From Hahella sp. HN01 (lineage in GTDB: Bacteria; Pseudomonadota; Gammaproteobacteria; Pseudomonadales; Oleiphilaceae): 54,295 nt of DNA. This document shows positions 29,514 through 54,295 of the stretch, in pieces; position 1 is the first letter of the stretch; each line of letters opens with the position of its first letter. Position numbers and translations under genes: made by a program. The stretch is from the NCBI RefSeq assembly GCF_018986435.1, contig NZ_JAHMIN010000020.1:66553-120847 (forward strand). The letters run 5' to 3'. The notes under the pieces are model-generated. The model saw only the letters and a list, made by a program, of their open reading frames with translations. It was not told the origin of the DNA and did no database searches.

Positions 29514-29530
29514 ACGGTTGGGCTTGATAG

Positions 29531-30969: not shown

Positions 30970-30987
30970 AACACCCTCCGCCTACAA

Positions 30988-31173: not shown

Positions 31174-31284
31174 TGTCTGGCCGGCCGTACGCTGGATTCA
31201 GTAGCCTGGAGAAGGTATCTTTAGCGCCTTGAAATCAAAAGGCGCGTATGCGCGATATATAAACGTTATGTGGCGGGAGTCACC

Positions 31285-31689: not shown

Positions 31690-31714
31690 TGACGTTTCGG
31701 TTGATTGAAGAGTT

Positions 31715-32143: not shown

Positions 32144-32194
32144 AACCCTGGATAAGCCAATGAGTTTTGCGACTCCACCGTTGAGCCAGACGTG

Positions 32195-34324: not shown

Positions 34325-35014
34325 TTGTCACGAGCTGAACGTTTGCTTGAACTCATGCAGACTCTGCGTCGCTACCGTTATCCGGTGAGCGGTAAGCAGT
34401 TGGCGTCTGAGTTGGGCGTTAGTATTCGCACGTTGTATCGCGACATTGCTTCGTTGCAGGCTCAGGGGGCGCATATAGAGGGGGAGCCGGGCGTTGGGTA
34501 TCTGTTGCGTCCTGGCTTTATGTTGCCGCCTTTGATGTTCTCCGATGAAGAAATTGAGGCGTTAGTGTTGGGTTCCAGATGGGTGTCCCGGCGAGGCGAT
34601 GCGAAGTTGGGGGAAGCCGCCCGTAATGTGATGGCAAAAGTTGCGGCGGTGATCCCCGCCGAGTTACGGCAGGAGCTGGAGACTTCCACGCTATTGATTG
34701 GACCCGCAGCGACGCAACCCGAGGACGACAGCATACTGGAAAGAGTGCGGGCGGCGATTCGGGCTGAGCGCAAACTATGCATTGCATACGGCGACAGCGA
34801 GGGTAACCCATCCACACGGATCATCTGGCCATTCGCGGTTGGCTTTTTCGACACCATCAGAGTCGTGGTTGCATGGTGCGAACTGCGCAAAGGGTTCCGC
34901 CATTTTCGCACAGACCGTATCGGTGAACTCCACAGTCTGGAGGCTCGCATTCCCCGGCGTCGTCATGACTTGTTGAAGGAATGGCGTGAATACAAAGGCG
35001 TGGAGCCGCAATAA
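34325..35014 (+). CDS. YafY-like WYL-domain transcriptional regulator
   Basis: About 229 residues from a TTG at 34325, giving the family's usual start LSRAERLLELMQTLRRYRYPVSGKQLASELGVSIRTLYRDIASL, a DeoR-type helix-turn-helix. The C-terminal half has the WYL-type ligand domain (RAAIRAERKLCIAYGDSEG, then the RTDRIGEL segment). A longer frame from an ATG at 34274 exists, but that ATG lies inside the palindrome at 34264-34280 and its extra residues are not family-like. Such regulators often sit beside a VOC gene, and that is the case here (35143-35520). It probably controls itself and the VOC gene through the two palindromes. Confidence 0.88.
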   Translation: MSRAERLLELMQTLRRYRYPVSGKQLASELGVSIRTLYRDIASLQAQGAHIEGEPGVGYLLRPGFMLPPLMFSDEEIEALVLGSRWVSRRGDAKLGEAARNVMAKVAAVIPAELRQELETSTLLIGPAATQPEDDSILERVRAAIRAERKLCIAYGDSEGNPSTRIIWPFAVGFFDTIRVVVAWCELRKGFRHFRTDRIGELHSLEARIPRRRHDLLKEWREYKGVEPQ

Positions 35015-35019
35015 AACTC

Positions 35020-35040
35020 TACTGCCAGAAACTGGCAGTA
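35020..35040. promoter_or_regulatory. Candidate operator TACTGCCA-N5-TGGCAGTA, copy 2
   Basis: A perfect 8-bp inverted repeat with a five-base spacer, just after the regulator stop and about 103 bases before the VOC gene. A weak TAAGAT -10 candidate lies at 35049-35054, so the site overlaps the likely promoter of the VOC gene. Confidence 0.65.
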
Positions 35041-35142
35041 TGCCTGCCTAAGATGATCTCCAACGAAGCGATGGAAGCCAGAAAGCACTTCAGCTTCGCC
35101 CGATAACGGGATTCAGTGATAGATCGAATTTGGAGAACGTTT

Positions 35143-35520
35143 ATGAAAGAACCTAGCTATATCATTTTGTATGTCAGCAATATGCCAGTCAGTACGGCGT
35201 TTTACTCAAATGTATTGGGGAAAGCTCCTGTGGAATCCTCCCCAGGCTTCTCGCTGTTTGTATTGGAGTCCGGCTGGAAGCTGGGACTGTGGGCAAAACA
35301 GGAAGTGAAGCCTGCAGCGGATATGACCGGCGGTGGCGCGGAGATTGGCCTGATGCTGGATAGCAAGGAAGCTGTCGACGCAGCGTTGGAAGACTTGAGC
35401 GCGATGCAGGCGAAGGTGATACAAGCGCCCACGCAAATGGACTTCGGCTATACCTTTGTCGTTCAGGACCCGGACGGACACAGAATTCGAGTATTTTGTC
35501 CCAGTGAGATTGTGCGCTGA
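35143..35520 (+). CDS. VOC (glyoxalase/bleomycin-resistance-like) protein
   Basis: 125 residues from the ATG at 35143, with GGAG upstream (the frame is open earlier, to 35116). The VOC pattern is seen: YIILYVSNMPVSTAFYSNVLG at the start, LGLWAKQEV in the middle, and the closing FVVQDPDGHRIRVFCP motif. Such proteins either bind small molecules or carry out metal-dependent reactions on them; which one cannot be told. It is the probable target of the upstream WYL regulator. Confidence 0.88.
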   Translation: MKEPSYIILYVSNMPVSTAFYSNVLGKAPVESSPGFSLFVLESGWKLGLWAKQEVKPAADMTGGGAEIGLMLDSKEAVDAALEDLSAMQAKVIQAPTQMDFGYTFVVQDPDGHRIRVFCPSEIVR

Positions 35521-35535
35521 AGTCAGCGGCTGGAG

Positions 35536-35564
35536 ATAAAGGCGGACATCTAAACCGCCTTTAT
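35536..35564 (+). terminator. Bidirectional terminator
   Basis: Perfect 10-bp stem ATAAAGGCGG / CCGCCTTTAT with a nine-base loop, and an A/T stretch on both sides. It lies between the convergent VOC (plus) and BNR-protein (minus) genes. Confidence 0.8.
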
Positions 35565-35574
35565 TATGAAGGAC

Positions 35575-36699
35575 TTACTGCCTCAATAAGACTTGCGGGA
35601 AAGTCGGGATATTTGTTGCGATGGAGCTGACCCTGTGTGCGGTGTAAAGCGCTCCGTGAAACTCGATGAAATCAAATACGCCTTTATATTCGCTGCCGGA
35701 GTTGCCGCCGGGGCTGCCTATCTGGCCCCAGTCGTGACCGTTTTCTGTGGCCCATAAGCGACCACCATCCACCGGATTGTAGGTTCCTGCGACTAGCAGG
35801 TCTCCCCAGGGATACAGCCGATACACCTCTTTTTCATCAAGACCTACTCCCATGCCGTCACCGGTGACTTTCTCCCAGACGCGCATATCCTCTGAGCGCC
35901 AGACAGCTCCGCCAGTCGTGCTGTTTAATGTGCCCAGCCAAAATGCGCCTTGCCATTCCACCAGAGAATGCAGCGTTTCATCGCTGGCGAAAGTCGTTTC
36001 ATTCACGCGCGCCCAATTTAGTCCGTTATTCGACGCCATTACGCTGACTTCACCTGAGTACGGGAGTCCTGTCGTCAAGTACAGCGTATTCTCGTGAGCC
36101 AGTAAGGAAAAAATGCCGGTGACGCCGGGGAAGGAGGCGGCTACGTTCCAGGTGACGCCATCGCAGGAACGATAAAGCCTGGCTTCAGTGTGTTTGTCGC
36201 TGCGTCCCGCCAGATAAATACAGCCCTGAAAGGCTTCAAACCAGCGACCATATTCATCCGCCTCGGATAGTGTCTTCACCCGCGTCCAGTTATGCCGCCC
36301 ATTCAGCGAGCGATAGATTTTGGGCGTGTCGCTCTGCGTTACCGCATAGAGATATCCGTCGGGGGCGGACCAGACCCGACGGACTTCGTTATCATCTGTG
36401 CTGAAAGGCACGTCCACCTGCGCCCAATTCTCACCATCTTCACTGCGCAACAGGCGCGCGGTGGGACCTCCAGAACCATACACAGCGCGTCCGCCGGCGA
36501 AGAGCGCGTCTTTATGGACACTGAAGGAATAATAACTGTTCTGCGTCATCCCCCAGTTTTGGGCGGAATCCTTGATTCTGATTCCAAAAGCCTCCGCCAG
36601 ACAGAGCGAGGACCCTGCGCAGAAGTACAACAGCAACGGGAGGGCAAGTACGGCCCGGATTAATGACGTTGGGAATTGGGTGGCTAAGCATCCTGACAT
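35575..36699 (-). CDS. Secreted BNR/sialidase-like beta-propeller protein
   Basis: 374 residues with a strong AGGAGGAG ribosome binding site and a signal peptide (hydrophobic about 12-34). The mature part repeats the Asp-box-like motif S-x-D-G-x-x-W several times: RSEDGENWAQV, RSLNGRHNWTRV, RSCDGVTWNV, WRSEDMRVWEKV, ENGHDWGQI. This is the propeller type seen in sialidase-like and exo-glycosidase-related proteins. I do not see the Arg triad and Tyr of a true sialidase clearly, so it may be a non-enzymatic binding or surface protein. Confidence 0.75.
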   Translation of the reverse strand: MSGCLATQFPTSLIRAVLALPLLLYFCAGSSLCLAEAFGIRIKDSAQNWGMTQNSYYSFSVHKDALFAGGRAVYGSGGPTARLLRSEDGENWAQVDVPFSTDDNEVRRVWSAPDGYLYAVTQSDTPKIYRSLNGRHNWTRVKTLSEADEYGRWFEAFQGCIYLAGRSDKHTEARLYRSCDGVTWNVAASFPGVTGIFSLLAHENTLYLTTGLPYSGEVSVMASNNGLNWARVNETTFASDETLHSLVEWQGAFWLGTLNSTTGGAVWRSEDMRVWEKVTGDGMGVGLDEKEVYRLYPWGDLLVAGTYNPVDGGRLWATENGHDWGQIGSPGGNSGSEYKGVFDFIEFHGALYTAHRVSSIATNIPTFPQVLLRQ

Positions 36700-40109: not shown

Positions 40110-41051
40110 ATATCGTCTCCAGAGTGTAGGGTTGAAAGCCTGTTTTTCAATGTCAGGAGCAGTTTATTGGGGATGTAAGCAAGGATAAATCCACCAAGCA
40201 TGGTTAAACTGTCTACAAAATACGAACAATGGGGCGAGGAGAGATCGGCATTGACCGCGAGATGCTGATGCGCCCTTCTGTGGTAAACGTTTTCCGCTCA
40301 CTTTTCCATTGCGGTTGGACTAACGAGTAAACCGGGGACATGAAGAGCGACTTTTTCCCCTAACGCTGCAATATAGTAAAAAATACGGACTACCGGATTG
40401 AAGCGGCTAAAAAAATATATATAATCACGTTTTGTTGATTAAACATTAACAGCACTACGAGTATTACAGGATGTTGTATTATAAGCCAAAGGGGACGGCC
40501 TCTATCCGTCCGTTTATGTCCTATCCCGGCTATATTCTCTCGGGTTCTTCTCTCCACCGCTTCTTATCCCGTTTATACAAGTATAGTTAAGTGTTTAAGT
40601 GAAATTTCCACGCCTTGTTTTTAAGGACGTAGCAAAAATGACATCAACTTGTCGTTATGGAAATTATGCTGTCAGGCGCGCCAATACTTGCGCTGCATAG
40701 AGTGGTTTTCTCTTTTGTCCATACTAATCAGTGGGTTATATGGGTGCATCTTTACGGAGGAAGCGAACGCTAATGACGTTTCTTTATGTCATGCTCATGC
40801 AATCTGGCGAGCATTAAATGGTTTGCGTAAAAGATATTCTGTCTAATTAGACAACATTAACGGGAATCAGGAAGTATTAATTGTGGAAAGGGAAGTATAT
40901 GGAACCTCGCATAGACTTATTCTAGTCCGTCGATAAATACCGCTCATTATATTTTTATATAAAGCTAAACAGGCTTTATGGCCTCCTATTGTCTGGCGTT
41001 TATAAATGCGCCGGCGGAAAAGGAAATAGTAATAACTAAAGGATACAGAAA
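40110..41051. other. Long upstream region of the NRPS operon
   Basis: 942 bases between the SDR gene (minus) and the thioesterase gene (plus). It carries the promoter candidate at 40398-40425 and the hairpin GGACGG / CCGTCC at 40493-40511, both AT-rich surroundings. A 20-codon peptide frame at 40638-40700 has AAGGA before it, but nothing else supports it. A weak lipoprotein-like frame at 40649-40846 has no ribosome binding site. Confidence 0.55.
40398..40425 (+). promoter_or_regulatory. Candidate sigma-70 promoter for the NRPS operon
   Basis: TTGAAG at 40398-40403 and a perfect TATAAT at 40420-40425, 16 bases apart, in an AT-rich patch. It is over 600 bases before the first coding start, so the transcript would have a long leader, or another promoter may lie closer. 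Confidence 0.5.
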
Positions 41052-41756
41052 ATGAAAGAAGTCTCTCTGGTTAACTTGGTTTGTCTCCCCTTCGCTGGCG
41101 CGGGCGCATCGGTGTTTCACGAGTGGAAGGATTTGTCCGAGAAGCTCAATGTGATCGCTGTGCAGTTGCCAGGACGGGAGAAGCGCTTTGTGGAGCCTGC
41201 CTACACCAACGTGGCGGAAGCGGTGCAGGGAATCATGCCCGAGTTAATGGCGGAGCTGGATTTCTCCAAACCCATCGTCTTTTTTGGACACAGCCTGGGC
41301 GCCGTGCTGGCGTTTGAGCTGGCGCGCGCCATGTGCGGAGAGGAAAAGGCCAATGTGCAGGGGTTAATCGTGAGTGGCTCTCCAAGCCCATGGAACAGCA
41401 GGGAAGAGCGCGCCTCTGGATTGCCGGATGATGAATTTGTACGCCGGGTCAATGAATTTGCCGGCTACTCTCATCCCGCCCTGGAAGACCCCATCATGCG
41501 GGAAGTGTTGTTGCCGACGCTGCGCGCGGATGTGGAGATGCATGAAAGCTATCACCCTCTGGCGGATGACTCCTTGCCGATCACGGTGCTGACTATTCGC
41601 GGCAGTGACGATGAGCTGGTGACGGCTGAGGATAAAGCGCTCTGGAGCAAGGCTTCTTCCGTGCAGACCCTGCACGAAGAGCTTCCCGGCGGCCATATGT
41701 ATTTGATGGACGATCCCAAGGCGCTTATCGCCCTGATCGAAAGTGCGGTTCTTTAA
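41052..41756 (+). CDS. Type II thioesterase of the NRPS operon
   Basis: 234 residues, AAGGA upstream of the start. The TE fold starts VNLVCLPFAGAGASVFHEW, and the nucleophile elbow is GHSLG with Ser81; the later RGSDDELV gives the catalytic Asp, and GGHMYL the catalytic His. It is the separate editing thioesterase found in NRPS and PKS clusters, which clears misprimed or stalled carrier domains. First gene of the operon, followed by the SDR. Confidence 0.9.
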   Translation: MKEVSLVNLVCLPFAGAGASVFHEWKDLSEKLNVIAVQLPGREKRFVEPAYTNVAEAVQGIMPELMAELDFSKPIVFFGHSLGAVLAFELARAMCGEEKANVQGLIVSGSPSPWNSREERASGLPDDEFVRRVNEFAGYSHPALEDPIMREVLLPTLRADVEMHESYHPLADDSLPITVLTIRGSDDELVTAEDKALWSKASSVQTLHEELPGGHMYLMDDPKALIALIESAVL

Positions 41757-41798
41757 TTCTTGTTATTAGTGGATCGCAGTGTCGTCAAGGAGATAACT

Positions 41799-42623
41799 AT
41801 GAGACTAAAAGGAAAAGTAGCGCTGGTTACCGGCGCAGCCAGAGGGTTGGGGCGCGCCTGCGCCCTTGAGTTCGCCAGACAGGGGGCGGATCTGATACTG
41901 CTGGATATTGGAAGAGATATCGCCACCGTGCCTTATCCCCTCGGATCGGAGAGCCAGCTTCAATACACCGCTCAATTATGTGAAGAGCAGGGCGTGGCGG
42001 TTTTGACCGGCTTGGCGGACGTGACGCGACAAGCTGAGATCAACGCTGTCGTCGCAAAAGGACTGGATCGTTTCGGACGCATTGATGTGCTGTTGAATAA
42101 CGCAGGCATCGCCGCACCGTCTGGAAAAATCGCCCATGACATCAGTGAAGATGAATGGACGACCATGATTGACGTCGATCTTTCCGGCGCCTGGCGGATG
42201 ATTCGCGCAGTGGGCGCCGCCATGACGGCGCGTCGCTCCGGCAGCATCATTAACATTGCTTCCACGGCGGGGGTGGTCGGTTACCGCCATTTCTCCGGCT
42301 ATGTGGCGGCCAAACATGGCGTCATCGGTCTGAGCAAAGCCGTCGCTCTTGATTACGCCCCGCTTAAAGTCCGGGTCAACGCGTTATGCCCGGGGTCTGT
42401 TCGCGACGCCTCCCATGTTGAAGGTCGCATGTTGTCTGAGATCGCGCGCTCCCTGCACGTGCCCGTCTCCGAGCACGAGGACACCTTTGTGCAGGCGCAG
42501 CCCATGAATGCGCTGATCGAGCCTGAGGATATCGCCCATAGCGCTGTATGGCTGGCTTCTGACGAGTCCCGTCAGGTCACCGGAAGCGTGATCACCGTCG
42601 ACGGCGGCTTCTCCGCGCGTTAG
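41799..42623 (+). CDS. SDR oxidoreductase, nicotinoprotein-like
   Basis: 274 residues from the ATG at 41799, with AAGGAG upstream. The NAD-binding TGAARGLGR motif is at 11-19, followed by LDIGRDIATVPYPLGSESQL, an extended segment typical of the mycofactocin-coupled SDR group (carveol-dehydrogenase-like). Catalytic Ser155, Tyr168 and Lys172 are in place. In that group the cofactor is held tightly and recycled by mycofactocin, but no mycofactocin genes are visible here. Placed between the thioesterase and the first NRPS, it probably oxidises or reduces an NRPS-bound or released intermediate. Confidence 0.85.
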   Translation: MRLKGKVALVTGAARGLGRACALEFARQGADLILLDIGRDIATVPYPLGSESQLQYTAQLCEEQGVAVLTGLADVTRQAEINAVVAKGLDRFGRIDVLLNNAGIAAPSGKIAHDISEDEWTTMIDVDLSGAWRMIRAVGAAMTARRSGSIINIASTAGVVGYRHFSGYVAAKHGVIGLSKAVALDYAPLKVRVNALCPGSVRDASHVEGRMLSEIARSLHVPVSEHEDTFVQAQPMNALIEPEDIAHSAVWLASDESRQVTGSVITVDGGFSAR

Positions 42624-42686
42624 GCGGTGGAAAGAGGTCTTCGCCAAGGACTGTCCAGATTTTCTCATTCGACATAAGGCACTTCC

Positions 42687-45674
42687 ATGAAAAGCACTTT
42701 TTTGAATCACCCGGAAATGGCCGGGAATCTGAGCTCTTACCTGAGTGACGGCGATGTGGCGCCCAGCGCACTGCACGCCGCCGCCTATCGCCTGACGCAA
42801 TCCGTCAATCCTGAGTCCGTTGCGATGCGGCTAAAACACGCCCTTGCTGCACTGCCGTTTATGCAAATGGCGGCCGAGGGACGTGAGTACGTCTGGATTG
42901 AGACGCTGCATTTGCGGGCGGACAGCTATCAGGCTGCGGACCGGGTCAGAAAGGAAATGGAGAGGCCGCTGGCCGAGACGTTTCCCTATATTCGCGTGGT
43001 GTTATTAACCTACGCAGACCGCTTTGTTGATTTGGTGATTGTCGCCAATCGCGCGGTTTTTGATAAAGCATCCCTGGATGCATTCGTCTGTGCGGCGATC
43101 TCTGAGCAGGACGCCGTTTACCAGTCGCCTGCGGCGGCGTCTGGATCTGAGCCGGAGTTGTCCTCTCTGCTATCCGCCGATTTCTCACCGCTTCCGGACT
43201 GGCGGGGCAAGGGCGAAGAGGGCCTGATCAGAATGCGTCTGGGCGTTTTCAGCGGCCAGGATGACCAGCAATTGGTGGCGGGCTGGATCAGTGCGCTGGC
43301 TACGGTATGGGCTCGCTATTCTGCGACGAACGTACCCGTCGTTGCCGTTAATGACAGCCGCGTCGAGTCGGTGAGCGGCTGGTCTCTAATCGCCGCGCCG
43401 GTGCAGGAAGACGCCACAGCGCAGCGTCTTAAAGCAAACATCGAGCAGTCGTTGCAGCAACCGGTCTGGCGCTCGCAGGAGCTGGCGAATCGTCTGCAAG
43501 ACTGTGAAAACGGCGGTGAAGTGTCTCTGGCTGCGCTCATCTATGACGCCGCAGCGTCACCGCACGTCAAGGTGGCGGCATGCGACTATGCGCCATCTCT
43601 GGGAGCGCCTTATCCGCTCACGCTGCTCATTGAGAGCCAGGGGCAGGGTCGATATTGCATCAGCGGGCTGGCTGACGGCGCTTTGTTTGCCGGCGACAGC
43701 GTCGAACAGTTCTTCCAGTGCGTGCGCCGGGCCTATGAGCGGCAGCGCGAAGATGGCGAATTGCATCTGCGCAGCTTTCCGCTGCTGGATGAAAAGGCGC
43801 AGCAGGAAGTGGCTGCGTTAGGCGTGGATCGCGAGCTTGGCGATATTCCAGCAGAACGTCTGGAGGAATTGTTCGCCCGTCAGGCCGCTCAAACTCCAGA
43901 GGCCGTCGCGCTCTCCTATGAAAACGAGCAAATGACCTACGCGGAGTTAGAGCGCAAGGCGCATCTCATGGCGCTGAATCTGGTTGTGCTCAACGTCAAA
44001 CCCGGTGATCGCGTTGGTATCTGTCTGGAGCGGTCATTTGATTTGATCGCGTCTATGCTGGCGATTCTGAAAGCGGGCGCAATATATATCCCCATGGACC
44101 CGGCCTATCCGGAAGAGCGTCTGTCATATACCTGTGAGAATGCCGAGATCCGTCTGGTGATTACCGACGCAGACGCATTCCCTGTGGCGGAGGAGCGGCG
44201 GCTGATAGCGCCGTCAGAGCTGGAGCGGGATATTGACGATGCGCGGGTGACGACGCCTTCCGCAGAGCAGGTCCGCGCCGATGACGCAGCCTATGTGATT
44301 TACACCTCTGGATCGACTGGCAAACCCAAAGGCGTGGTGGTTCCTCACAAGAATGTCGTCAGCCTGCTGGCGGCGACGCAGGAGGATTTTGGCCTCAATG
44401 CGCAGGACGCCTGGACCTTTTTCCACTCCGCCGCGTTCGACTTCTCAGTGTGGGAAATATGGGGAAGTCTGCTGACGGGCGCCCATCTCGTGATCGTGCC
44501 CTATTGGGTCTCCCGCGCGCCTGACGAGTTTCTGGAGCTGGTCAGGGAGAAGCAGGTTTCGGTGCTGAACCAGACCCCTTCCGCTTTCTCCCAGTTTATG
44601 GAAATGGAGCGAAACGGCGCTGCGCTGGAGCATTTGCGACTGGTTATCTTCGGTGGCGAACCCCTCGACGCGAAGATGCTGATGAAGTGGTTCGACCGCT
44701 ACCCGGAATCCCGTTGTCGTTTGGTGAACATGTTCGGCATCACCGAAACCACGGTGCATGTCACCGCCCAGACCATTGCGCGCGCAGAGGCCATGGCCGG
44801 TTCGCGCTCTGTCGGTCCGGCGATTCCAGGCTGGCGTTTATATGTATTGGACGCCGCGCGCAATATTCTGCCGGTGGGCGTAGCGGGTGAAATTTACGTC
44901 GCGGGAGCGGGCGTCGCTTCGCAATACCTGAACCGCCCGGAATTGACGGAAGAACGCTTTATGCCTGATCCCTTTTGTGGTGGTCGCATGTATCGCAGCG
45001 GCGACAAGGGGCGTTTATTGCCATGCGGACGCCTGGAGCATTTAGGGCGCCTGGACAGTCAGGTGAAGCTGCGTGGCTTCCGCATCGAATTGGATGAAAT
45101 CCGCAAAGTCTTGCTCGGCGTCCATGGGGTAGAGGCGGCGGCGGTGGTGTTGAACCAGCCGGATAAAAACGATCCGGCTTCCGCCCGTTTGGACAGTTAT
45201 CTGGTGTTGTCGGATATCGCCGTGGAGGACGTGATCGTCAAAGCGGAGAAGATGCTGCCGACTTACATGATGCCTTCCACCTTCACCCAGGTTGACGCCA
45301 TGCCGCTGACGGCGAATGGCAAGCTGGACGTTAAGAAGCTGCCTGAGCCCAAGGCGCAGAGCAAAGCGGCGGATAAGCCTAAGGCCATGGCGGAGAGCTC
45401 TTCCGAGCCTGCTAAAACCAGCTTGGAAGAGACTGCGGCGGAGACAGAAGCCGACCGTCTCGTCGCTGACATGGTCAGGGTCTGGAGTGAAGTGCTGGGG
45501 CGTGAAGTGACCGCGGCAGACAACTTTTTCAGCCTTGGCGGCAACTCCCTTTATGCGGTCAGAATCGCCTCCGCCATGAGAGCGGCGGGTCTGCCTGCGC
45601 TTCCGATACGTGAGTTATACGTGCGGCAGACCATTGAAAAACTGGCGCCGGTAATGGTCGGCAATGGAGGTTAG
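42687..45674 (+). CDS. NRPS subunit 1: degenerate C - A(Thr) - PCP
   Basis: 995 residues. A full-size condensation-like domain (about 1-385) has lost the HHxxxDG motif; the corresponding segment reads NRAVFDK, with Arg at the catalytic His position. The adenylation domain (about 395-890) has intact cores (YTSGSTGKPKG near 538, FGITETT, NGKLD). Its specificity pocket by PheA numbering is D-F-W-N-I-G-M-V-H-K, the established threonine code. A linker rich in Ala/Glu/Lys leads to the carrier domain with FFSLGGNSL; Ser954 is the phosphopantetheine site. The product is a carrier-bound threonine. With no active condensation domain ahead of it, this is the loading module. Confidence 0.93.
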   Translation: MKSTFLNHPEMAGNLSSYLSDGDVAPSALHAAAYRLTQSVNPESVAMRLKHALAALPFMQMAAEGREYVWIETLHLRADSYQAADRVRKEMERPLAETFPYIRVVLLTYADRFVDLVIVANRAVFDKASLDAFVCAAISEQDAVYQSPAAASGSEPELSSLLSADFSPLPDWRGKGEEGLIRMRLGVFSGQDDQQLVAGWISALATVWARYSATNVPVVAVNDSRVESVSGWSLIAAPVQEDATAQRLKANIEQSLQQPVWRSQELANRLQDCENGGEVSLAALIYDAAASPHVKVAACDYAPSLGAPYPLTLLIESQGQGRYCISGLADGALFAGDSVEQFFQCVRRAYERQREDGELHLRSFPLLDEKAQQEVAALGVDRELGDIPAERLEELFARQAAQTPEAVALSYENEQMTYAELERKAHLMALNLVVLNVKPGDRVGICLERSFDLIASMLAILKAGAIYIPMDPAYPEERLSYTCENAEIRLVITDADAFPVAEERRLIAPSELERDIDDARVTTPSAEQVRADDAAYVIYTSGSTGKPKGVVVPHKNVVSLLAATQEDFGLNAQDAWTFFHSAAFDFSVWEIWGSLLTGAHLVIVPYWVSRAPDEFLELVREKQVSVLNQTPSAFSQFMEMERNGAALEHLRLVIFGGEPLDAKMLMKWFDRYPESRCRLVNMFGITETTVHVTAQTIARAEAMAGSRSVGPAIPGWRLYVLDAARNILPVGVAGEIYVAGAGVASQYLNRPELTEERFMPDPFCGGRMYRSGDKGRLLPCGRLEHLGRLDSQVKLRGFRIELDEIRKVLLGVHGVEAAAVVLNQPDKNDPASARLDSYLVLSDIAVEDVIVKAEKMLPTYMMPSTFTQVDAMPLTANGKLDVKKLPEPKAQSKAADKPKAMAESSSEPAKTSLEETAAETEADRLVADMVRVWSEVLGREVTAADNFFSLGGNSLYAVRIASAMRAAGLPALPIRELYVRQTIEKLAPVMVGNGG

Positions 45675-45678
45675 TGAT

Positions 45679-48600
45679 ATGGATTTCACCGAGCTTGAGG
45701 CGATCCGCGCGGCGGAAACCTATTGGCGGGGTCTGTTTGACGCAGAGTGGTCGCCAACGGAACTTAAAGCGCCGTCCCGCGCGGCGGAGCCTGTTGAGCG
45801 TCTGGTGGCGAGCATCCCTGTTGGCGCAGACCTGCTGAGCGCCATTGAAGGCGCCGCCGCCGAGGTGGGCGTTACGCCGCAGCAAGTGGCGCTGGCGGGG
45901 TGGTTGACGGCGTTGATGCATTTTACTGACATGGAGCGTCTGACGCTGTCAGTGCAACTCGACGACGCCACGATTATTCCGCTGATGTTCACGCTGGATT
46001 CCAGCGCCGATCTGGCCTCAGTGATTGATCTGATCGCGAAGACGATGACGGAAGCGCTGTCTCATCGCGCGTTTCCTTATCTCAAGCTTGCCGCGGAAGA
46101 GTATGGTCTTCTGCCGCCGGCGCAGGACTTGTTGACGCCCCTGTTGTTCAATCTGGGAGAGAAGGACGCTCCGCGTGCGCCCATTGTCATGGGGCTGCGC
46201 GTCACGGCGGAGGGAGCCGAGCTGCTGGTTCAGGGGGGCGGCGTGTTCGCATCCTACGGCTACCTGCGCCCTTTGTGCACTGCGGTTATGAATATTCTGG
46301 AGATGGGTTTGTTGCAGGACAAACCTTTGTCTCAGCTGGAGCTTTTAGCCCCGGATGAAATTACTGAGCGATTGGGGCGGGGAACGGCGACGGTCACCGC
46401 CTTTGATGAATACGCCAGAATTGAAGAAGCCTTTGCGGCGCGCGTGGCGGAAACCCCCAGGGCGCTGGCGATAACCCATGGAGAGGCGTCCCTTACTTAC
46501 GCTGAACTGGATGAGGTCAGCTACCAGCTCGCCCAAGCCCTGCGCGAGCTGGGCGTGCAGCCAGGACAGGTTGTCGCCATTCATACCCCGCGCAGCATCC
46601 CCATGGCGGTTTCCGCACTGGCGGCGCTCAAAGCGGGAGCCGTCTATATGCCTTTGGACCCTGACTATCCCGCTGAGCGCATTCAGTTGCTTATGGAGGA
46701 CAGTCAGGCTGCCGTGCTGATCCACAGTGAAGAAGCTCCGCCGAGCGCCCTGGTCGGTGCGACACATGCGTTGCTAGCGCTGGACATGCCTGGCGGGCGT
46801 GTGCGCGCCCTGCAAATCCAGACGCCGTCGCAGTCCGCCCCGGCGGATTTTCAGGCGGCCTATCTGATGTTTACGTCCGGCACTACCGGGCGTCCCAAAG
46901 GCGTACTTAACACGCACGCAGGCGTTCTGCGATTGGTTCGGCGCGCCACTTATCTCGACCTGCAACCCGGCGTGCGCGTCGCTCAGGCCGGCGCAACAGG
47001 ATTTGACGCCAGTGTGTTTGAAATCTGGGCGGCGCTGCTCAACGGCGGCTGCCTGCAGATTGTTGATCGGGAAGTGCTCCTGGACAGCGTTGAACTGGCG
47101 CGTTTTTTCCGGGAGCAGGAAACAGATGTTGCGTTGATTACGACCTCACTGTTTTCACAGCTGGCCAGCGATGATCCCGCCATGTTCGCGCCCTTAAGCC
47201 AGTTGCTGGTGGGCGGCGATGTGATCTCTCCGAAGCAAGTGGCGGCGGTATACGCCGCCTGTCCGGGAATCGTCATTCTGAATGCCTACGGCCCCACTGA
47301 AAACGGGGTCATATCCACGGTGCAGCGTATTGATCCCGCTCGACTGGACAGTATTTCCATTGGCGCTCCCATCAGTAATTCCGTCGCGCTGGTGCTGAAC
47401 CGGTTTGGTCGTCTGACGCCGCCGTTGTTTGAAGGCGAGCTGTATGTCGGCGGCGCTGGCTTGGCGTTAGGGTATTTGGGACGGGAAGACGAGACGAGCA
47501 AAGCATTCGTACCTCATCCTTACGCCCCGGGAAGCCGGATCTATCGCACGGGAGACCGGGCGCGCTGGAATACCGAGGATGAGCTGGAGTTTCTCGGACG
47601 CCGGGATTTTCAGATCAAAATTCGCGGTTTTCGGGTTGAGCTGGGCGAAATCGAGAAAGCGGCGCTGTCGCATCCGACGGTGAGTGAAGCCTTGGTGCTC
47701 GCGCTCAAGCCCGAAGGCGCAGCGGAATATCGGCTGCATTGCTATTTAGGCGTCGCTGATGAGTTTGATCTGGATAGTTGGCGTCAGCAACTCATCGATC
47801 AACTACCCGCGCACATGGTTCCGGCGGCGGTCTGGGCCATGCCTGAATTGCCGTTGACGGTTAATGGCAAGGTGGACCGTCGCGCCCTGGCGGAGATGAA
47901 GCAGGTAGAGTCCGGCGGCGCTGAAGCGGTGGATGATATCGAACGCGTCTTACTGGAAATAGGTCGCTCGCTTTTGAACATTGACCATCTGGCGACGGAT
48001 GACGACCTGATCAGGTTGGGCGCAAGCTCGTTAACCGCCGCCATGATCGCGTCGCGGGCGCGTCGTGACCTGGGCGTAAAAATCGCCGTCGCCGATGTTC
48101 TGCGCAGTGGCACGGTGGCGGAGTTAGCGACGTTGGTCAGAGGGCAACGGGGGCGGAGCGCCACAACGGGTGGAGTGATAGCTTCTCCAGCGCAAGCCAG
48201 CATAGAAGCGACGCCGCAACAGGTGCGTTTGTTCATCGAGCAGTCCAAGCAGGCGGACGCCTGTCATTACAATTTACCGATTTGGGTGGCGCTGCCGGCG
48301 GATATAGACCCGGTTCGCTTGCAGGAGTCCTTGCGGCGATTAGTTGATCGACACGAAATTCTCCGCACCTCGTTTGAACGCGAAGGGGAAGTTACCCGGC
48401 AGTTGATTCATGCCGACCCAGCTGTGTCGATAGCGGAGGCGCCGGCGGCTTCAGACGTATTCAATGCGCTGACTCAATTCATCCAGCCCTTTGACTTGAA
48501 GCAGGGGCCCCTGTGGCGCGCAGCGCTCTATCGCGACTCAGAGAAAACCTATCTGCTCTTCGATATTCACCATATTTTGACTGATGGCTATTCACTCCTC

Positions 48601-49509
48601 CGTTTGTTTGCGGAGTGGGAGGCGCTGTATCGCGGCGATAGTTTGTCTGCGTCGCCCCTGCAATATCGTGACTATGCGCACTGGCTGGCCAGCGACGGCG
48701 GTCAGGCCCATCTGGCGGAGCAGGAAGCCTATTGGCTGAAGATGTATGCGGAGAAGCCTGCGCTGCCGGATTTACCTACGGACTTTCCAAGATCCGGGGT
48801 GCGCAGTCTCAGTGGGGAGTTTCTTGAGTTTGATTTGGGAGAAGAGAGGACGGCGAACATTCGTCGCCTGTCCGAGCGTCTTCAGGTCAGCGTCTATCAG
48901 TTCCTGCTGTCCTGTTATGGCGTCTTCCTGGCCCAGGTTACCGGCGATGACGACGTCACCATAGGGACGCCCGTCGCAGGTCGTCTGGCCCCTGGCGTCG
49001 ACGACATTCAGGGGATGTTCGTGAATACGCTCTGTTTGAGGCTGCGACCGGCTCTGGCTGCGCGCTTTGAAGACTATTTGCGGGAGGTGGCCGACATGAC
49101 GCTGAACGCCTTCGACAACCAGGATTACCCCTTTGACCGTCTGGTGGCGCAGGTTGCTGCGGACCGCTCTTATGGCCGCTCTCCGCTGTTTGACGCCATG
49201 TTTGCGCTACAGAACACAGGGCTGAGCAGACAAACGTTTCTGGGCGGCGCGATCGTCTGGACGCCGGCGGCGACCGGTGCGGCCATCTATGACCTCAACC
49301 TGCAAATTGAAGATGGCGAAACCAGCCTGCGAGCAAGCTGGCATTTCAATCGGGATCTTTTCACCGCCAAGACAATGGCTTCTTTCCGTGATCGGCTGCT
49401 GGAGATCATTGATAAGGCGCTGAGCGATGTGAATAGCCAGATTCGAACGCTGAATCAGGACGAAGAAAGTGGCCCGGTTGCGTTACCGGAAATCGAGTTT
49501 GAATTTTAA
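45679..49509 (+). CDS. NRPS subunit 2: C-lobe - A - PCP - C
   Basis: 1276 residues from the ATG at 45679 with GGAGG upstream; a start at 45664 would overlap the previous gene. The N-terminal 240 residues match only the C-terminal lobe of a condensation domain (starting at the YWRGLFD segment, ending before the A domain); the lobe with HHxxxDG is missing. The A domain (about 250-745) has pocket D-A-F-L-L-G-A-V-I-K, not a standard code, most like hydrophobic amino acids. The carrier Ser is 784 (GASSL). A complete condensation domain follows, about 820-1250, with intact HHILTDG at 964-970. The ending lacks an epimerase or TE, so it hands over to subunit 3. Confidence 0.9.
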   Translation: MDFTELEAIRAAETYWRGLFDAEWSPTELKAPSRAAEPVERLVASIPVGADLLSAIEGAAAEVGVTPQQVALAGWLTALMHFTDMERLTLSVQLDDATIIPLMFTLDSSADLASVIDLIAKTMTEALSHRAFPYLKLAAEEYGLLPPAQDLLTPLLFNLGEKDAPRAPIVMGLRVTAEGAELLVQGGGVFASYGYLRPLCTAVMNILEMGLLQDKPLSQLELLAPDEITERLGRGTATVTAFDEYARIEEAFAARVAETPRALAITHGEASLTYAELDEVSYQLAQALRELGVQPGQVVAIHTPRSIPMAVSALAALKAGAVYMPLDPDYPAERIQLLMEDSQAAVLIHSEEAPPSALVGATHALLALDMPGGRVRALQIQTPSQSAPADFQAAYLMFTSGTTGRPKGVLNTHAGVLRLVRRATYLDLQPGVRVAQAGATGFDASVFEIWAALLNGGCLQIVDREVLLDSVELARFFREQETDVALITTSLFSQLASDDPAMFAPLSQLLVGGDVISPKQVAAVYAACPGIVILNAYGPTENGVISTVQRIDPARLDSISIGAPISNSVALVLNRFGRLTPPLFEGELYVGGAGLALGYLGREDETSKAFVPHPYAPGSRIYRTGDRARWNTEDELEFLGRRDFQIKIRGFRVELGEIEKAALSHPTVSEALVLALKPEGAAEYRLHCYLGVADEFDLDSWRQQLIDQLPAHMVPAAVWAMPELPLTVNGKVDRRALAEMKQVESGGAEAVDDIERVLLEIGRSLLNIDHLATDDDLIRLGASSLTAAMIASRARRDLGVKIAVADVLRSGTVAELATLVRGQRGRSATTGGVIASPAQASIEATPQQVRLFIEQSKQADACHYNLPIWVALPADIDPVRLQESLRRLVDRHEILRTSFEREGEVTRQLIHADPAVSIAEAPAASDVFNALTQFIQPFDLKQGPLWRAALYRDSEKTYLLFDIHHILTDGYSLLRLFAEWEALYRGDSLSASPLQYRDYAHWLASDGGQAHLAEQEAYWLKMYAEKPALPDLPTDFPRSGVRSLSGEFLEFDLGEERTANIRRLSERLQVSVYQFLLSCYGVFLAQVTGDDDVTIGTPVAGRLAPGVDDIQGMFVNTLCLRLRPALAARFEDYLREVADMTLNAFDNQDYPFDRLVAQVAADRSYGRSPLFDAMFALQNTGLSRQTFLGGAIVWTPAATGAAIYDLNLQIEDGETSLRASWHFNRDLFTAKTMASFRDRLLEIIDKALSDVNSQIRTLNQDEESGPVALPEIEFEF

Positions 49510-49528
49510 AATTTAGAGGCAGTAGGAC

Positions 49529-52500
49529 ATGCAGTCTATAGAAACCAAAGGACAATTAAAGGTTGCGGCGGCGCAGCGGCCGGAGCACGGAAAATACTGG
49601 CGCAGTCTTTTAGCTGAGCCGGTGGAGAAAAGCCTGTTTCATCCCGATAGGGTGAAGCCGTCGGGGTCGCTGAATCAACGCTATGTGCATACATTGGACG
49701 CCGACGTAAGGCAGCGCCTGCATAAGTTAAGCGGCGGCAAAACCGCGACGCGTCAAGTGGTCATGCTGGCGGCGCTGGCGGAATTGCTGCGTCGCTACAC
49801 CGGCTCCGACACGGCCTGCATCGGTCAGCCGTTGCAACCGGAGCAAACCAAACTGTCCGACTATCTGGCGCTGCGCATTCAGGCGCCGGCGCACGCGAAT
49901 TTTAAGCAGCTGCTGGGCGCGGCGCGGGACGCCATGCTTGCGGGGCTGGAATTCTGCGACTATCCGTTGACGGTGTTGGCGGATGAGTTTGGTCTGGAAG
50001 CGGAGAAGGGCGGCAATCCCTTTTTTGATGTGGCGTTGGAAGCGCTTGAGACGGCTGATGACTCAGTATCCAGTCAATTTCAGTGTCGGGTGCTGATCAG
50101 CCATTTCGTTGACGCTGAGCAAGGGGAATTGACGATTTCCTATGACGACGGTCTGTTTGATGCGGACAGCATTCAGCGTATCGCCGAACACTTTGAGAAG
50201 CTGCTGCTGGAGCTATCAAGCGCGCCTGACGCAGAGGTCACGGCGGCTTCCATCACCACGCCTGCGGATGAGGCGTTGCTGCAGCAGGTCAATGCGACTG
50301 AGCGGGAATATCGCCGGGACGTCAGACTCGAAACGGTTTTTGCTGAGCAGGTGGCGCAGACGCCGGATGCGGCGGCGGTGGTCTGTGGTCAGGACCAACT
50401 GACCTATGCGCAGCTTAATGACGCAGTGAATTCCCTGGCGGCGCAGTTGCGGGCGGCCGGCGTGGCGGAAGATCAGCTGGTGGCGGTGGCGGCCGAGCGC
50501 TCGACGCAGATGATGGTGGCGATCCTGGCGATTTTACGAGCCGGCGGGGCCTACTTGCCGATAGACCCGGGTTATCCGGCAAACCGAATTCAGTATGTGC
50601 TGGAAAACAGCGGCGCCAGCGTCATTCTGACTCACCGTAATCTGCTGCAGTTGGATACGTCCGGCTATACCGTCATCGATATTGACGAGAAAGTGCAGGG
50701 CGCAGAGCGCGCGGCGGCTGAGACGGTCGGCAGTGCGGAAAATCTCGCCTACGCCATTTACACCTCAGGCTCTACCGGTAAACCCAAGGGCGTTTTAATC
50801 GAGCATCACTCCGTCATCAACCGGATCGCCTGGATGCAGAACGCCTATCCGCTAACGGCGGAGGACGTCATCCTGCAGAAAACGCCGATTTCATTCGATG
50901 TGTCCGTGTGGGAATTGTTCTGGTGGTTCTTTACCGGTTCCCGCGTCTGCATGCTGGAGCCCGGCGGTGAGCGCGAACCGGAGAAAATCGTGGCGGCCAT
51001 TGAGGCGAATAAGGTGACGACCATGCACTTTGTGCCGTCCATGCTGAACGCCTTCCTGGATTATGTGGAGTCCACTCAGGCGGTTGCTCGTTTGCAGTCG
51101 CTGCGCAAGGTGTTTACCTCCGGCGAAGCGTTGACCCTGCATCAGGCGGAGCGTTTCAAGAAGCTGCTGCACGCGGCCAATGGAACCCGTCTGATCAACC
51201 TGTATGGCCCAACTGAGGCGACGGTGGACGTCACCCATATTGACTGCACTGCCAAAGCCACTCTGGACAAGGTTACTATCGGAAGTCCCATCGACAACAC
51301 TCAGATTCATATCGTAGACAAGCAGTTGCGCCGTCTGCCTATAGGCGTTCCCGGAGAGCTTTGCATCGCTGGCGTCGGGTTGGCGAGGGGCTATCATGCG
51401 CTGCCGGAAATGACGGCGGATCGCTTTGTCTCCAATCCTGAAAACGCATCTGAACGCTGGTATAGAACTGGCGATTTGGCGCGCTGGCTCGGCAATGGTG
51501 AAATCGAGTATCTGGGCCGTCTGGATCATCAGGTGAAAGTGCGCGGTTTTCGTATTGAACTGCAGGAAATCGACGCGGTTTTGCGTTCCCATCCCTCCGT
51601 GCGCGACGCCGTCACGCTGGTGCACCGCGCCGCCGGTCTGGACAAGCTGGTCGCCTACGTCACCGTCAGCGGCGAGCCGGAGCAAGAGACCCTGCGTCAG
51701 CATGTGGCGGGGCAGGTTCCGGCCTATATGGTTCCAGATATGGTTATCGTGCTGGAGCAAATGCCGCTGTCGCCGAACGGGAAGCTGGATCGTAAAGCGC
51801 TGCCGTCGCCGGACAGCTATTTGCAAACCGCGGAATATACTGCGCCCCGTAACCGCACCGAGGAAATTCTGGCGGACATCTGGCGCGAGGTGCTGCAGTT
51901 GCCTCGCGTTGGCGTGCACGATAACTTTTTTGCGATTGGCGGCAACTCGATTCACTTCGTCACTGTTCTCGCCAAGGCCAGAAAGTTCGATCTGGAGTTC
52001 ACCTTCCAGCAGTTGTTCGCCAACCCCACGATAGCGACGTTGGCGCAGGCGATGGAAGAAGAAAAAGGCGAGCTTCAGCAACACCGCTTTGACGCGTTTG
52101 AGCTGCTCGGCGAGCAGGACCGCCAGCGTCTGCCGCAAGGGGTTGATGACGCTTATCCGCTGTCCATGTTGCAGGCGGGACTGATATTCCAGAACGAGCT
52201 GACTTTCGGCACGGCGCAATATCACGACATTATCAGCTACATCATTGAGAGCCCGATCAATCTGGAGGTGTTCAAGCGCGCGGCGGACATTCTGGTCAAG
52301 CGTAACCCGATCTTCCGCACCAGCTATCACCTGGATGGCTTCGACGAGTATATCCAGATGGTGCATACGGACGTGGAAGCGCCGCTGTACTGTCACGACC
52401 TGCGGGGAATGAGCGAAGAAGAGCAGGAGCAGTGGCATCAGAACTGGCTGGCGGAAGAGAAAGCGTACCGTTTCGAATGGAATCAGCCCGGCCTGGTGCG

Positions 52501-54295
52501 CCTGCATGTGCATGTCCTGCGCGACAACATGTACCGCTATGTGCTTAGTCAGCATAACTCCGCCCTCGACGGCTGGAGCATCACTCTGGTGCATACGCAG
52601 CTGTTCCGCATATACAACAGGCTGCTGCAGGGCGGGACCTTTGACGAGCCGCTGGTGGACAATCACATTCGCAATTACATCGGCCTGGAAGCCCAGTCGT
52701 TGCGCTCCGTCAGTGATCGTGCGTTCTGGGAGAATATGCTGGACGGCGCGACATATACCCGTCTGCCCAAACTGGACGCCGCGCAGCCCGTCTCAGAGCT
52801 GTCCGTGCTGTTTCATGAGGTGGACATCAGCAAGCAGCTGTCCAACAGGATCATTGCGCTGGCTGACCAGTTGGCGGTTCCGGTCAAAACACTGTTGATG
52901 GCGGCGCACCTTAAATTCCTGAGCGTGGTGTCCGGCGATGCTGACGTCATGACCGGTTACGAACACAGCGGCCGTCCTGAAGCGGAAGACGCCACCAAGG
53001 CGATCGGACTTTTCCTCAACACAGTGCCGTTCCGGGTGGATGTCGATGTGGAGTCCTGGGCTGGCCTGATTCAACGCGTGTATCAAGCGGAAGCGGCGTT
53101 GTTGCCGCACCGTCGTTATCCCATGGCGCGCATGAAACAGGATATCGGGACGCAGGAGCCGCTGTTCGACACCGCTTTCAACTACACCCATTTCTATCTG
53201 TTGAAAGAACTCAAGGAAATGCCGGAGTTCAATCTGCTGGACGTGCGGGCGAACTCGGAGACGGAATTCACGATTCGGGCCGAGTTCTGCCGTCACTTCT
53301 TCACTGACGATGTGAAACTCAGCCTGCACTACCACGAGCACGCTTTCACGTCGGAGCAGGTGGAGAACTTCGCGCAATACTATCTCACTATCTTTGAGAG
53401 CATGACTCAGGACCCCAAAGCGGACCCCAGACGCCAGCCCATTCTGACGCAACAGGAACTGGCGGTTATCGCAGAGCAGGGCGCTAAAGTTCCGGTGAAT
53501 CTGGCGCAGCGTCCAGAACTGGAAAATACGGATGCGGGCGTTTATCTCCTGGGAGAATCCGGTCGCTTTATTCCTGTGGGAGCGGTCGGGGACCTGTATT
53601 TTGTGAACGCTGAAGCGGACAGACTGGAGACTGATGTTAATCCGGTCCTGAACGGCCTGGGATTGCGACCCACTGAACTTAAGGGGCGCTATGTCCAGGA
53701 TGGCGGCGTTGAGGTTGTTAACGGGATATCTGCGCTGATTTTCCGGAAGCCTGAGTTGCAGCAGAGCAAAACCGTCGACACAGCGGCGGCGCAACAGACT
53801 CCGCTGGATGCGGTGGAGAAGCGCATCGCGGCGGCCTGGGCGCAGGCGCTCAAGATTCCCCAAGAGAATATCGGACGCGACGATAACTTCTTTGACCTGG
53901 GCGGTAACTCTCTGGCGGCGATGAAAGTCACGATTCTGCTGGAAGGACTGATTTCCCTGGTGGATCTCATGCGCAACTCCACTCTGGCGCCGCTGGCGGA
54001 TGTGGCCAGAAAGAAAATGCCCGCCGACGAGGCTGACCTTCTGGTGTCGCTGACCTCTGATCGGCGTTCAGCGCCGGTCACTCTGGTGTGCTTCCCCTAT
54101 GCGGGCGGCAACGCGATTAACTTCAAGCCATTCGCCGAACGCCTTGCAGAGTTGAACGCCGAGGTGCAGGTTTTCGCCGTGGAACCTCCGGGGCATAACC
54201 TGAGCGATACCGGTGAAGCGCTGTTGTCCGTCGAGGAGTTGGCGAAGAAGGTAGCTGCGGAAATCAGCGCCAATATCAGCGGCGACGTCTTCATT
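49529..54295 (+). CDS. NRPS subunit 3 (3' cut): C-lobe - A(Ser) - PCP - C - A remnant - PCP - TE
   Basis: At least 1589 residues, open to the window edge, so the stop is missing. Like subunit 2, it starts with only the C-terminal lobe of a condensation domain (about 1-215). The A domain (about 265-765) has pocket D-V-W-H-F-S-L-V-D-K, a known serine code. The first carrier Ser is 807. The following condensation domain (about 850-1290) reads HNSALDG at 1009-1015: the second, catalytic His is Asn. Next comes a segment of about 110 residues that looks like the tail of an A domain (IPVGAVGDLYF; RYVQDGGVEVVNG) without its ATP-binding part. A second carrier domain has Ser1461, and a thioesterase begins at about 1510. 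So the last module has no functional A domain. Confidence 0.93.
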   Translation, partial: MQSIETKGQLKVAAAQRPEHGKYWRSLLAEPVEKSLFHPDRVKPSGSLNQRYVHTLDADVRQRLHKLSGGKTATRQVVMLAALAELLRRYTGSDTACIGQPLQPEQTKLSDYLALRIQAPAHANFKQLLGAARDAMLAGLEFCDYPLTVLADEFGLEAEKGGNPFFDVALEALETADDSVSSQFQCRVLISHFVDAEQGELTISYDDGLFDADSIQRIAEHFEKLLLELSSAPDAEVTAASITTPADEALLQQVNATEREYRRDVRLETVFAEQVAQTPDAAAVVCGQDQLTYAQLNDAVNSLAAQLRAAGVAEDQLVAVAAERSTQMMVAILAILRAGGAYLPIDPGYPANRIQYVLENSGASVILTHRNLLQLDTSGYTVIDIDEKVQGAERAAAETVGSAENLAYAIYTSGSTGKPKGVLIEHHSVINRIAWMQNAYPLTAEDVILQKTPISFDVSVWELFWWFFTGSRVCMLEPGGEREPEKIVAAIEANKVTTMHFVPSMLNAFLDYVESTQAVARLQSLRKVFTSGEALTLHQAERFKKLLHAANGTRLINLYGPTEATVDVTHIDCTAKATLDKVTIGSPIDNTQIHIVDKQLRRLPIGVPGELCIAGVGLARGYHALPEMTADRFVSNPENASERWYRTGDLARWLGNGEIEYLGRLDHQVKVRGFRIELQEIDAVLRSHPSVRDAVTLVHRAAGLDKLVAYVTVSGEPEQETLRQHVAGQVPAYMVPDMVIVLEQMPLSPNGKLDRKALPSPDSYLQTAEYTAPRNRTEEILADIWREVLQLPRVGVHDNFFAIGGNSIHFVTVLAKARKFDLEFTFQQLFANPTIATLAQAMEEEKGELQQHRFDAFELLGEQDRQRLPQGVDDAYPLSMLQAGLIFQNELTFGTAQYHDIISYIIESPINLEVFKRAADILVKRNPIFRTSYHLDGFDEYIQMVHTDVEAPLYCHDLRGMSEEEQEQWHQNWLAEEKAYRFEWNQPGLVRLHVHVLRDNMYRYVLSQHNSALDGWSITLVHTQLFRIYNRLLQGGTFDEPLVDNHIRNYIGLEAQSLRSVSDRAFWENMLDGATYTRLPKLDAAQPVSELSVLFHEVDISKQLSNRIIALADQLAVPVKTLLMAAHLKFLSVVSGDADVMTGYEHSGRPEAEDATKAIGLFLNTVPFRVDVDVESWAGLIQRVYQAEAALLPHRRYPMARMKQDIGTQEPLFDTAFNYTHFYLLKELKEMPEFNLLDVRANSETEFTIRAEFCRHFFTDDVKLSLHYHEHAFTSEQVENFAQYYLTIFESMTQDPKADPRRQPILTQQELAVIAEQGAKVPVNLAQRPELENTDAGVYLLGESGRFIPVGAVGDLYFVNAEADRLETDVNPVLNGLGLRPTELKGRYVQDGGVEVVNGISALIFRKPELQQSKTVDTAAAQQTPLDAVEKRIAAAWAQALKIPQENIGRDDNFFDLGGNSLAAMKVTILLEGLISLVDLMRNSTLAPLADVARKKMPADEADLLVSLTSDRRSAPVTLVCFPYAGGNAINFKPFAERLAELNAEVQVFAVEPPGHNLSDTGEALLSVEELAKKVAAEISANISGDVFI

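What the first reader, a model, noticed from the sequence alone, without database searches (positions are those of the whole stretch)
41052..54295. NRPS operon encoding a Thr-, unknown- and Ser-loading assembly line
Three consecutive subunits have pocket codes DFWNIGMVHK (Thr), DAFLLGAVIK (non-standard, probably hydrophobic) and DVWHFSLVDK (Ser), with a type II thioesterase and a dedicated SDR in front, then an A-less final module and a TE. The condensation domains are incomplete. Only the one at the end of subunit 2 has an intact motif, so a simple linear Thr-X-Ser peptide cannot be made by textbook logic. This suggests either trans-acting condensation or an unusual product such as a modified single amino acid or a short dipeptide.
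Basis: partly seen in the sequence, partly recalled or inferred. Interest (0 to 1): 0.75.

Follow-up and report, generated by a model that had tools for sequence, protein, structure and literature searches.

The report
Serine-dehydrating NRPS line loading threonine separately
These genes encode a small bacterial assembly line that probably joins one greasy amino acid to a serine turned into dehydroalanine and to a threonine brought in by a separate enzyme; the parts are of known kinds, but the product of this combination is unknown.

Summary
The window ends because the contig ends. Three of six other sampled genomes of the genus carry the cluster. There it runs on with a complete thioesterase, a ligase-like ATP-grasp enzyme, an AzlC-type exporter and a CN-hydrolase; contig C25 of the own genome matches this and adds AzlD.

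The "incomplete" C domains make sense. Two N-termini are C-lobe remnants. The C domain before the last carrier is full-length and closest to the dehydrating (CmodAA) domains of McyA and AmbE, but its second histidine is asparagine in four of four genomes. The thioesterase of the relatives has a cysteine nucleophile and an ObiF1-like triad. Most likely a short X-dehydroalanine-threonine-type compound is made, threonine being loaded in trans, as in AMB and legonmycin biosynthesis. PMC8748450 already lists a Hahella strain among such clusters. I call it a new variant of a known kind. A threonine beta-lactone is the boldest reading not excluded.

The parts
41052..41756 (+). Type II thioesterase, Ser nucleophile motif GHSLG; proposed Thr shuttle
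   Evidence: PF00975 1.7e-35; nearest solved chains 6vap and RifR; sequence
41799..42623 (+). SDR oxidoreductase (ORF from 41760, likely start ATG 41799)
   Evidence: PF13561 2.9e-54; carveol dehydrogenase 3oec 3.3e-52; dN/dS 0.013-0.028
42687..43841 (+). NRPS1 N-terminus, 385 residues, no recognisable domain
   Evidence: no C-domain match; predicted model unusable, pLDDT 37
43872..45323 (+). NRPS1 A domain, code DFWNIGMVHK (Thr)
   Evidence: code in PMC4169593
45474..45647 (+). NRPS1 T domain (GGNSL)
   Evidence: PF00550
45685..46308 (+). NRPS2 N-terminal C-lobe remnant (end approximate)
   Evidence: PF00668 positions 185-271, 7.7e-6, two stretches
46432..47871 (+). NRPS2 A domain, code DAFLLGAVIK (X, probably hydrophobic)
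47950..48138 (+). NRPS2 T domain (GASSL)
48199..49455 (+). NRPS2 C domain, intact HHILTDG, canonical type
49571..50281 (+). NRPS3 N-terminal C-lobe remnant
   Evidence: PF00668 positions 189-455, 9e-20
50339..51784 (+). NRPS3 A domain, code DVWHFSLVDK (Ser)
   Evidence: code in PMC3795760
51866..52051 (+). NRPS3 T1 (GGNSI), no amino-acid change in five pairwise comparisons of four genomes
52145..53458 (+). NRPS3 modifying (CmodAA, dehydrating type) C domain
   Evidence: McyA 5.9e-79, AmbE 9.9e-58; KTLLMAAH and HRR
52553..52573 (+). Active-site motif HNSALDG, second His replaced by Asn
   Evidence: same in 4 of 4 genomes
53816..54028 (+). NRPS3 T2 (GGNSL), with no A domain of its own
54080..54295 (+). 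Start of the thioesterase domain, cut by the contig end
   Evidence: PF00975 residues 1518-1583; contig end; rest in relatives

Best explanation
An AMB/legonmycin-style short-peptide assembly line. NRPS2 loads a hydrophobic residue X, and its canonical C domain joins X to Ser held on T1 of NRPS3. The CmodAA-type C domain of NRPS3 dehydrates the Ser to dehydroalanine. NRPS1 activates Thr, and the TEII carries it to the A-less T2, so that an X-Dha-Thr-type chain forms there. The cysteine TE releases it; the SDR oxidises an intermediate; the ATP-grasp enzyme adds or joins a further amino acid; AzlC/AzlD export the product. Shown by sequence: domain classes, pocket codes, motifs, gene order, conservation. 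Inferred: the order of steps, Thr transfer, dehydration, the substrates of SDR and ligase, and the product.
For: Architecture (A-T)-(A-T-C)-(A-T-C-T-TE), compared with AmbB A-T-C and AmbE Q-A-MT-T1-C2-T2-TE (PMC10880069). NRPS3 C is closest to McyA (269 bits) and AmbE (199 bits), then McyB (144) and others at 101 or less; NRPS2 C is closest to TycC and lists neither McyA nor AmbE at E 1e-20. NRPS3 C has the K...H and RR residues reported for CmodAA domains, NRPS2 C has not (PMC11342130 section 8). T1 has GGNSI, near the GGDSI reported for this donor type. TEII, a separate Thr-loading A-T subunit and an A-less C-T didomain are the three traits listed for LgnA-type Thr shuttling (PMC8748450). 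The CmodAA domain (dN/dS 0.02-0.06) and T1 (no amino-acid change) are more constrained than the intact C of NRPS2 (0.09-0.17). AzlC/AzlD and ATP-grasp genes follow.
Against: The second His of HHxxxDG, essential in AmbB (H953A, PMC8968710) and needed in AmbE-C (H1497A, PMC10880069), is Asn here, so this domain may not form a peptide bond. Transfer of Thr to T2 is untested and the TEII may only edit; its nearest solved relatives are 6vap and RifR, and no LgnA sequence was at hand. The SDR has no assigned step. The TE cysteine was not seen in this genome itself.
Confidence: 0.45

Rival explanations
1. AMB-like pro-drug amino acid. The modifying C domain dehydrates Ser in X-Ser but makes no new bond; the chain passes from T1 to T2 and is released as a short X-(Dha-derived) unit. 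Thr and the SDR make a separate unit that the ATP-grasp ligase attaches later.
For: Missing second His; AmbE is described as dehydrating, then transferring from T1 to T2 (PMC10880069); ligase family of BacD and DdaF next door.
Against: A whole Thr-loading NRPS subunit and an A-less carrier are then without an evident link; no oxygenase or methyltransferase as in amb was found in the NRPSs or the downstream genes that I scanned.
Confidence: 0.25
2. Conjugate addition. The modifying C domain makes Dha and then adds the amine of the T2-bound residue to its side chain instead of forming a peptide bond, giving a diaminopropionate-type product.
For: In CmodAA domains that catalyse conjugate addition (BlmVI, TlmVI, ZbmVI) the second His is lost (PMC11342130 section 8); it is lost here.
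Against: Those domains lack both His, whereas the first is kept here; the nearest solved relatives are McyA and AmbE, not bleomycin-type (none of the latter seen among the 15 PDB hits).
Confidence: 0.12
3. A decaying operon without a product.
For: C-lobe remnants at two N-termini and an altered active-site motif.
Against: The genes are open in four genomes apart from the assembly gap, the five-residue T-domain motifs with their Ser are kept in the proteins scanned, and dN/dS is at most 0.30 in all parts measured.
Confidence: 0.04

Closest known systems
AMB biosynthesis (ambABCDE), Pseudomonas aeruginosa
   Same: A-T-C subunit followed by a subunit with an N-terminal segment of unknown role, A, T, CmodAA C, A-less T and TE; an amino-acid exporter; trans-loaded last carrier (in AMB shown, here proposed)
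   Different: No MT domain in NRPS3; no AmbC/AmbD-like oxygenase among the genes scanned; AzlC/AzlD instead of a LysE-type AmbA; an additional Thr-loading NRPS, TEII, SDR and ATP-grasp gene; HN instead of HH (PMC4357302 and PMC10880069)
Legonmycin LgnA/LgnB/LgnD
   Same: TEII, separate Thr-activating A-T subunit, A-less C-T didomain and a C* (dehydrating) domain
   Different: In Lgn the A-less carrier precedes the dehydrating C domain and receives the residue to be dehydrated; here it follows it. Ours has a separate Ser A domain (PMC8748450 passages)
Albopeptide AlbA/AlbB (Val-Dha-Dhb)
   Same: Hydrophobic residue, Ser and Thr as predicted or known substrates; canonical C followed by dehydrating C
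   Different: Two dehydrating C domains in AlbB against one here; its architecture is known to me only from the review PMC10880069
ObiF1 (obafluorin) and SulM (sulfazecin) thioesterase domains
   Same: Cys nucleophile, Asp in the later position, His; Gly where most TEs have Asp (relatives of the window)
   Different: Whole assembly line differs; GHC as in ObiF1, not the QCN of SulM; ring closure untested
Bacilysin ligase BacD / dapdiamide synthase DdaF
   Same: ATP-grasp L-amino-acid ligase family
   Different: Distant: BacD chain 3wo1 2.9e-9; NCBIfam scores 40.6 and 45.2 bits against cut-offs of 850 and 840

Membership tests
CmodAA (dehydrating) condensation domain | Sequence closer to McyA/AmbE C domains than to canonical C domains | tested here: met
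   McyA 5.9e-79, AmbE 9.9e-58, next McyB 4.7e-41, PvdL about 5e-28; no tree was made
CmodAA (dehydrating) condensation domain | [K/R]SVLLAAH helix and Arg(s) at the C6 motif | tested here: met
   KTLLMAAH and HRRYP; NRPS2 C lacks both
CmodAA (dehydrating) condensation domain | HHxxxDG active site (DG strict; His variable in the class) | tested here: inconclusive
   HNSALDG in 4 of 4 genomes; 3 of 50 CmodAA domains are reported with a mutated second His (PMC11342130); 5 of 5 distant relatives keep it
AMB (amb) cluster | MT domain, two oxygenases and LysE-type exporter | tested here: not met
   No MT domain in NRPS3, none of these families among the cluster proteins scanned
LgnA-type TEII aminoacyl shuttle system | TEII + standalone A-T NRPS + extra A-less C-T didomain | tested here: met
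   NRPS1 has in addition a 385-residue N-terminus
LgnA-type TEII aminoacyl shuttle system | TEII falls in the LgnA clade and transfers Thr between carriers | not testable with these tools
   no LgnA sequence at hand; nearest solved TEIIs are 6vap and RifR
Beta-lactone/lactam-forming Cys thioesterase (ObiF1/SulM) | Cys nucleophile with Asp in the later position and Gly at the usual Asp position | tested here: met
   in the relatives: GHCVG, alignment to ObiF1 2.7e-29; not visible in the window's own genome
Beta-lactone/lactam-forming Cys thioesterase (ObiF1/SulM) | Closes a four-membered ring | not testable with these tools
   needs enzyme assay; editing TEIIs share the Asp position (PMC11298585)
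Mycofactocin-coupled SDR (TIGR03971) | Score above the family cut-off and a mycofactocin maturase in the genome | tested here: not met
   284.8 against 300 bits; no TIGR03962 match over cut-off in the own genome, five weaker radical-SAM matches
L-amino-acid ligase (BacD/DdaF) | ATP-grasp fold with LAL C-terminal domain | tested here: inconclusive
   ATP-grasp_4 2.1e-17; LAL_C2 8.8e-4, under its cut-off

The most novel reading that the evidence does not exclude
The line makes a threonine beta-lactone: Thr is shuttled by the TEII from NRPS1 to the A-less T2, joined to X-dehydroalanine by a CmodAA domain that works without its second histidine, and the cysteine TE closes the Thr hydroxyl onto its own carboxyl.
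Probability: 0.15. Interest if true: 0.75.

Novelty: new variant of a known kind. Interest (0 to 1): 0.5.

Why it matters
It is a compact, conserved system in which four unsettled NRPS features meet: possible trans-loading by a TEII, N-terminal C-lobe remnants of unknown role, a modifying C domain without its catalytic histidine, and a cysteine TE of the ring-closing type. Reconstituting it would show what the second histidine is for in CmodAA domains and could reveal a new small antimetabolite.

Tried and rejected
AlphaFold on the N-termini of NRPS1 and NRPS2 gave mean pLDDT 37.4 and 38.0, too poor for a fold search, so none was run. Profile-profile comparison with the NRPS2 C domain found the NRPS3 N-terminus (80.5%, 1.3e-5) but not those of NRPS1 (2.7%) and NRPS2 (0.7%); the four-row profiles are shallow. 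A leftover A domain in the linker between the CmodAA domain and T2 was suspected from a 24-residue match to the NRPS1 A domain (i-Evalue 0.048) but Pfam finds nothing there, so it is not claimed. Rfam at gathering threshold finds nothing in the window. Promoter-like sites upstream do not exceed shuffles (3 found, mean 2.3). Operon decay was set aside on dN/dS. Mycofactocin coupling of the SDR was set aside. A genome-contig scan with NRPS2 gave seven loci of 30-35% identity, no orthologue (near relatives may be left out by the tool).
Full report
Observation. The five genes at 41052-54295 are as described. NRPS1 (995 aa) has A and T; NRPS2 (1281 aa) A, T and C; NRPS3 (1589 aa, open) A, T, C, T and the start of a TE. 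NRPS1 and NRPS2 overlap by 11 bases; NRPS3 starts 20 bases after the last base of NRPS2. Thr and Ser codes are in print (PMC4169593 and PMC3795760, one passage each). The second code was in no paper of the library; that it is hydrophobic is my judgement from its letters.

Setting. The window is the end of contig C46 of a 7.13 Mb assembly in 134 contigs. I take the genus to be Hahella because the contig of G002 has 7,215,267 bases, the size I recall for H. chejuensis KCTC 2396; this is recall, not a tool result. The NRPS1 N-terminus has a match in 4 of 97 genomes searched, the own one included, all in the genus, of which 7 genomes were in the set. The SDR has matches of 98% identity or more in the same four; the next best is 39%.

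Completed cluster. In G001, G002 and G005 the order is TEII, SDR, NRPS1, NRPS2, NRPS3 (1756-1757 aa), a 397- or 403-residue ATP-grasp protein, a 273-residue AzlC-type protein and a CN-hydrolase (Pfam was run on the G002 copies, the others were aligned). In the own genome contig C25 starts inside the TE and continues with the ATP-grasp gene (L034 452-1645), AzlC (1668-2489), AzlD (2464-2805, PF05437 8.6e-22) and CN-hydrolase (2855-3643, PF00795 7.3e-33). AzlD was scanned only there. The ATP-grasp protein matches PF13535 (2.1e-17), LAL_C2 weakly (8.8e-4) and BacD (2.9e-9).

C domains. The N-termini of NRPS2 and NRPS3 match the C-terminal part of the Pfam model, NRPS2 below the curated cut-off. 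AmbE has a 461-residue N-terminus of unknown function (PMC4357302, passage), called Q in PMC10880069 (section 18, part 1 of 2). The internal C domain of NRPS3 is full-length and nearest to McyA and AmbE; PMC4357302 says AmbE's C groups with McyA's. NRPS2's C is nearest to TycC. No C-domain tree was built. Five distant relatives came from overlapping samples of 390, 369 and 398 genomes, in which 3, 2 and 2 genomes, the own one included, had a match at the thresholds set (the congeners with the cluster are not among those matches). Five of five keep the second His. Ours has Asn in four of four genomes. This is not decay: dN/dS (Nei-Gojobori, five of the six pairs of four genomes) is 0.02-0.06 in this domain and T1 has no amino-acid change, against 0.09-0.17 in the intact C of NRPS2 and 0.13-0.18 in the N-termini of NRPS1 and NRPS2.

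Thioesterases. The TEII has GHSLG and is closest to 6vap and RifR. The TE of NRPS3 in the three relatives has GHCVG. The G002 copy aligns to ObiF1 (2.7e-29) at the Cys, Asp (DPLTP) and His (GGHYF) of its triad, with Gly at the usual Asp place, and to the SulM TE (7.1e-20). The triad is described in PMC6668435 and PMC11298585 (passages). Both enzymes close four-membered rings, but editing TEIIs share the Asp position, so the feature is suggestive only.

How it works. Shown: domains, codes, motifs, gene order, selection. Inferred: X (NRPS2) is joined to Ser on T1; the CmodAA-type domain dehydrates Ser; Thr from NRPS1 reaches T2. This follows two published schemes: AmbB loads T2 of AmbE (PMC4357302; PMC8968710) and the TEII LgnA carries Thr from LgnB to LgnD (PMC8748450). 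PMC8748450 (passages) lists Hahella sp. KA22 among genomes with LgnA-like TEIIs, standalone LgnB-like NRPSs and extra C-T didomains. Its supplementary figure was not open to me, so whether it shows this cluster is not known. If it does, the loading idea is already in print and what remains is the HN motif, the ObiF1-like TE and the ligase and exporter context.

Against it. AmbB H953A abolishes condensation (PMC8968710) and AmbE H1497A loses product (PMC10880069), so the Asn may mean that no peptide bond is made. Then dehydration with chain transfer, or conjugate addition as in bleomycin-type domains (PMC11342130 section 8), are alternatives. The TEII may only edit. The SDR is tightly constrained (dN/dS 0.013-0.028) yet has no assigned step.

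Literature coverage. Searches, seen as listings with abstract beginnings: Hahella chejuensis with nonribosomal peptide (19 papers), AMB genes (41, 8), albopeptide (76, 4 listed of 5), LgnA/B/D (77, 5 of 6), HNxxxDG (78, 0), ObiF1 (91, 3), Hahella and related terms (92, 12 listed of 89), pocket codes (104, 5), AzlC with nonribosomal and ATP-grasp (107, 0). Nine papers were opened, for passages or one section each; none of what I saw describes a product of this cluster. Subscription papers and supplements are not covered.

Noticed in passing
41760-42623: The SDR aligns without a gap to carveol dehydrogenases of the mycofactocin-associated type (3oec, 3.3e-52) over the stretch after the Rossmann motif, although no mycofactocin maturase passes the cut-off in the genome.
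   Followed up: partly
40110-41051: About 940 bases without an ORF of 80 residues or more lie before the operon; large parts are 88-95% identical in the three relatives.
   Followed up: partly
49473-49506: NRPS2 ends in an acidic tail (LPEIEFEF) facing the N-terminal C-lobe remnant of NRPS3; it may be a docking element.
   Followed up: no
G000:C52:32565-73677: The same genome has a large NRPS locus with eleven C-domain matches on another contig.
   Followed up: no
L034:2855-3643: A CN-hydrolase (nitrilase-like) gene follows AzlD by 49 bases and is less conserved (90-91% identity between own genome and relatives) than the ligase gene; it may or may not belong to the operon.
   Followed up: partly
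20835-23834: A 999-residue protein joins an NMT1/THI5-like domain with PAS, GGDEF and EAL domains.
   Followed up: no
28001-36000: G+C falls to 45-47% here against 50-60% elsewhere in the window; a GH5 cellulase-type gene lies at 29797-30969.
   Followed up: no
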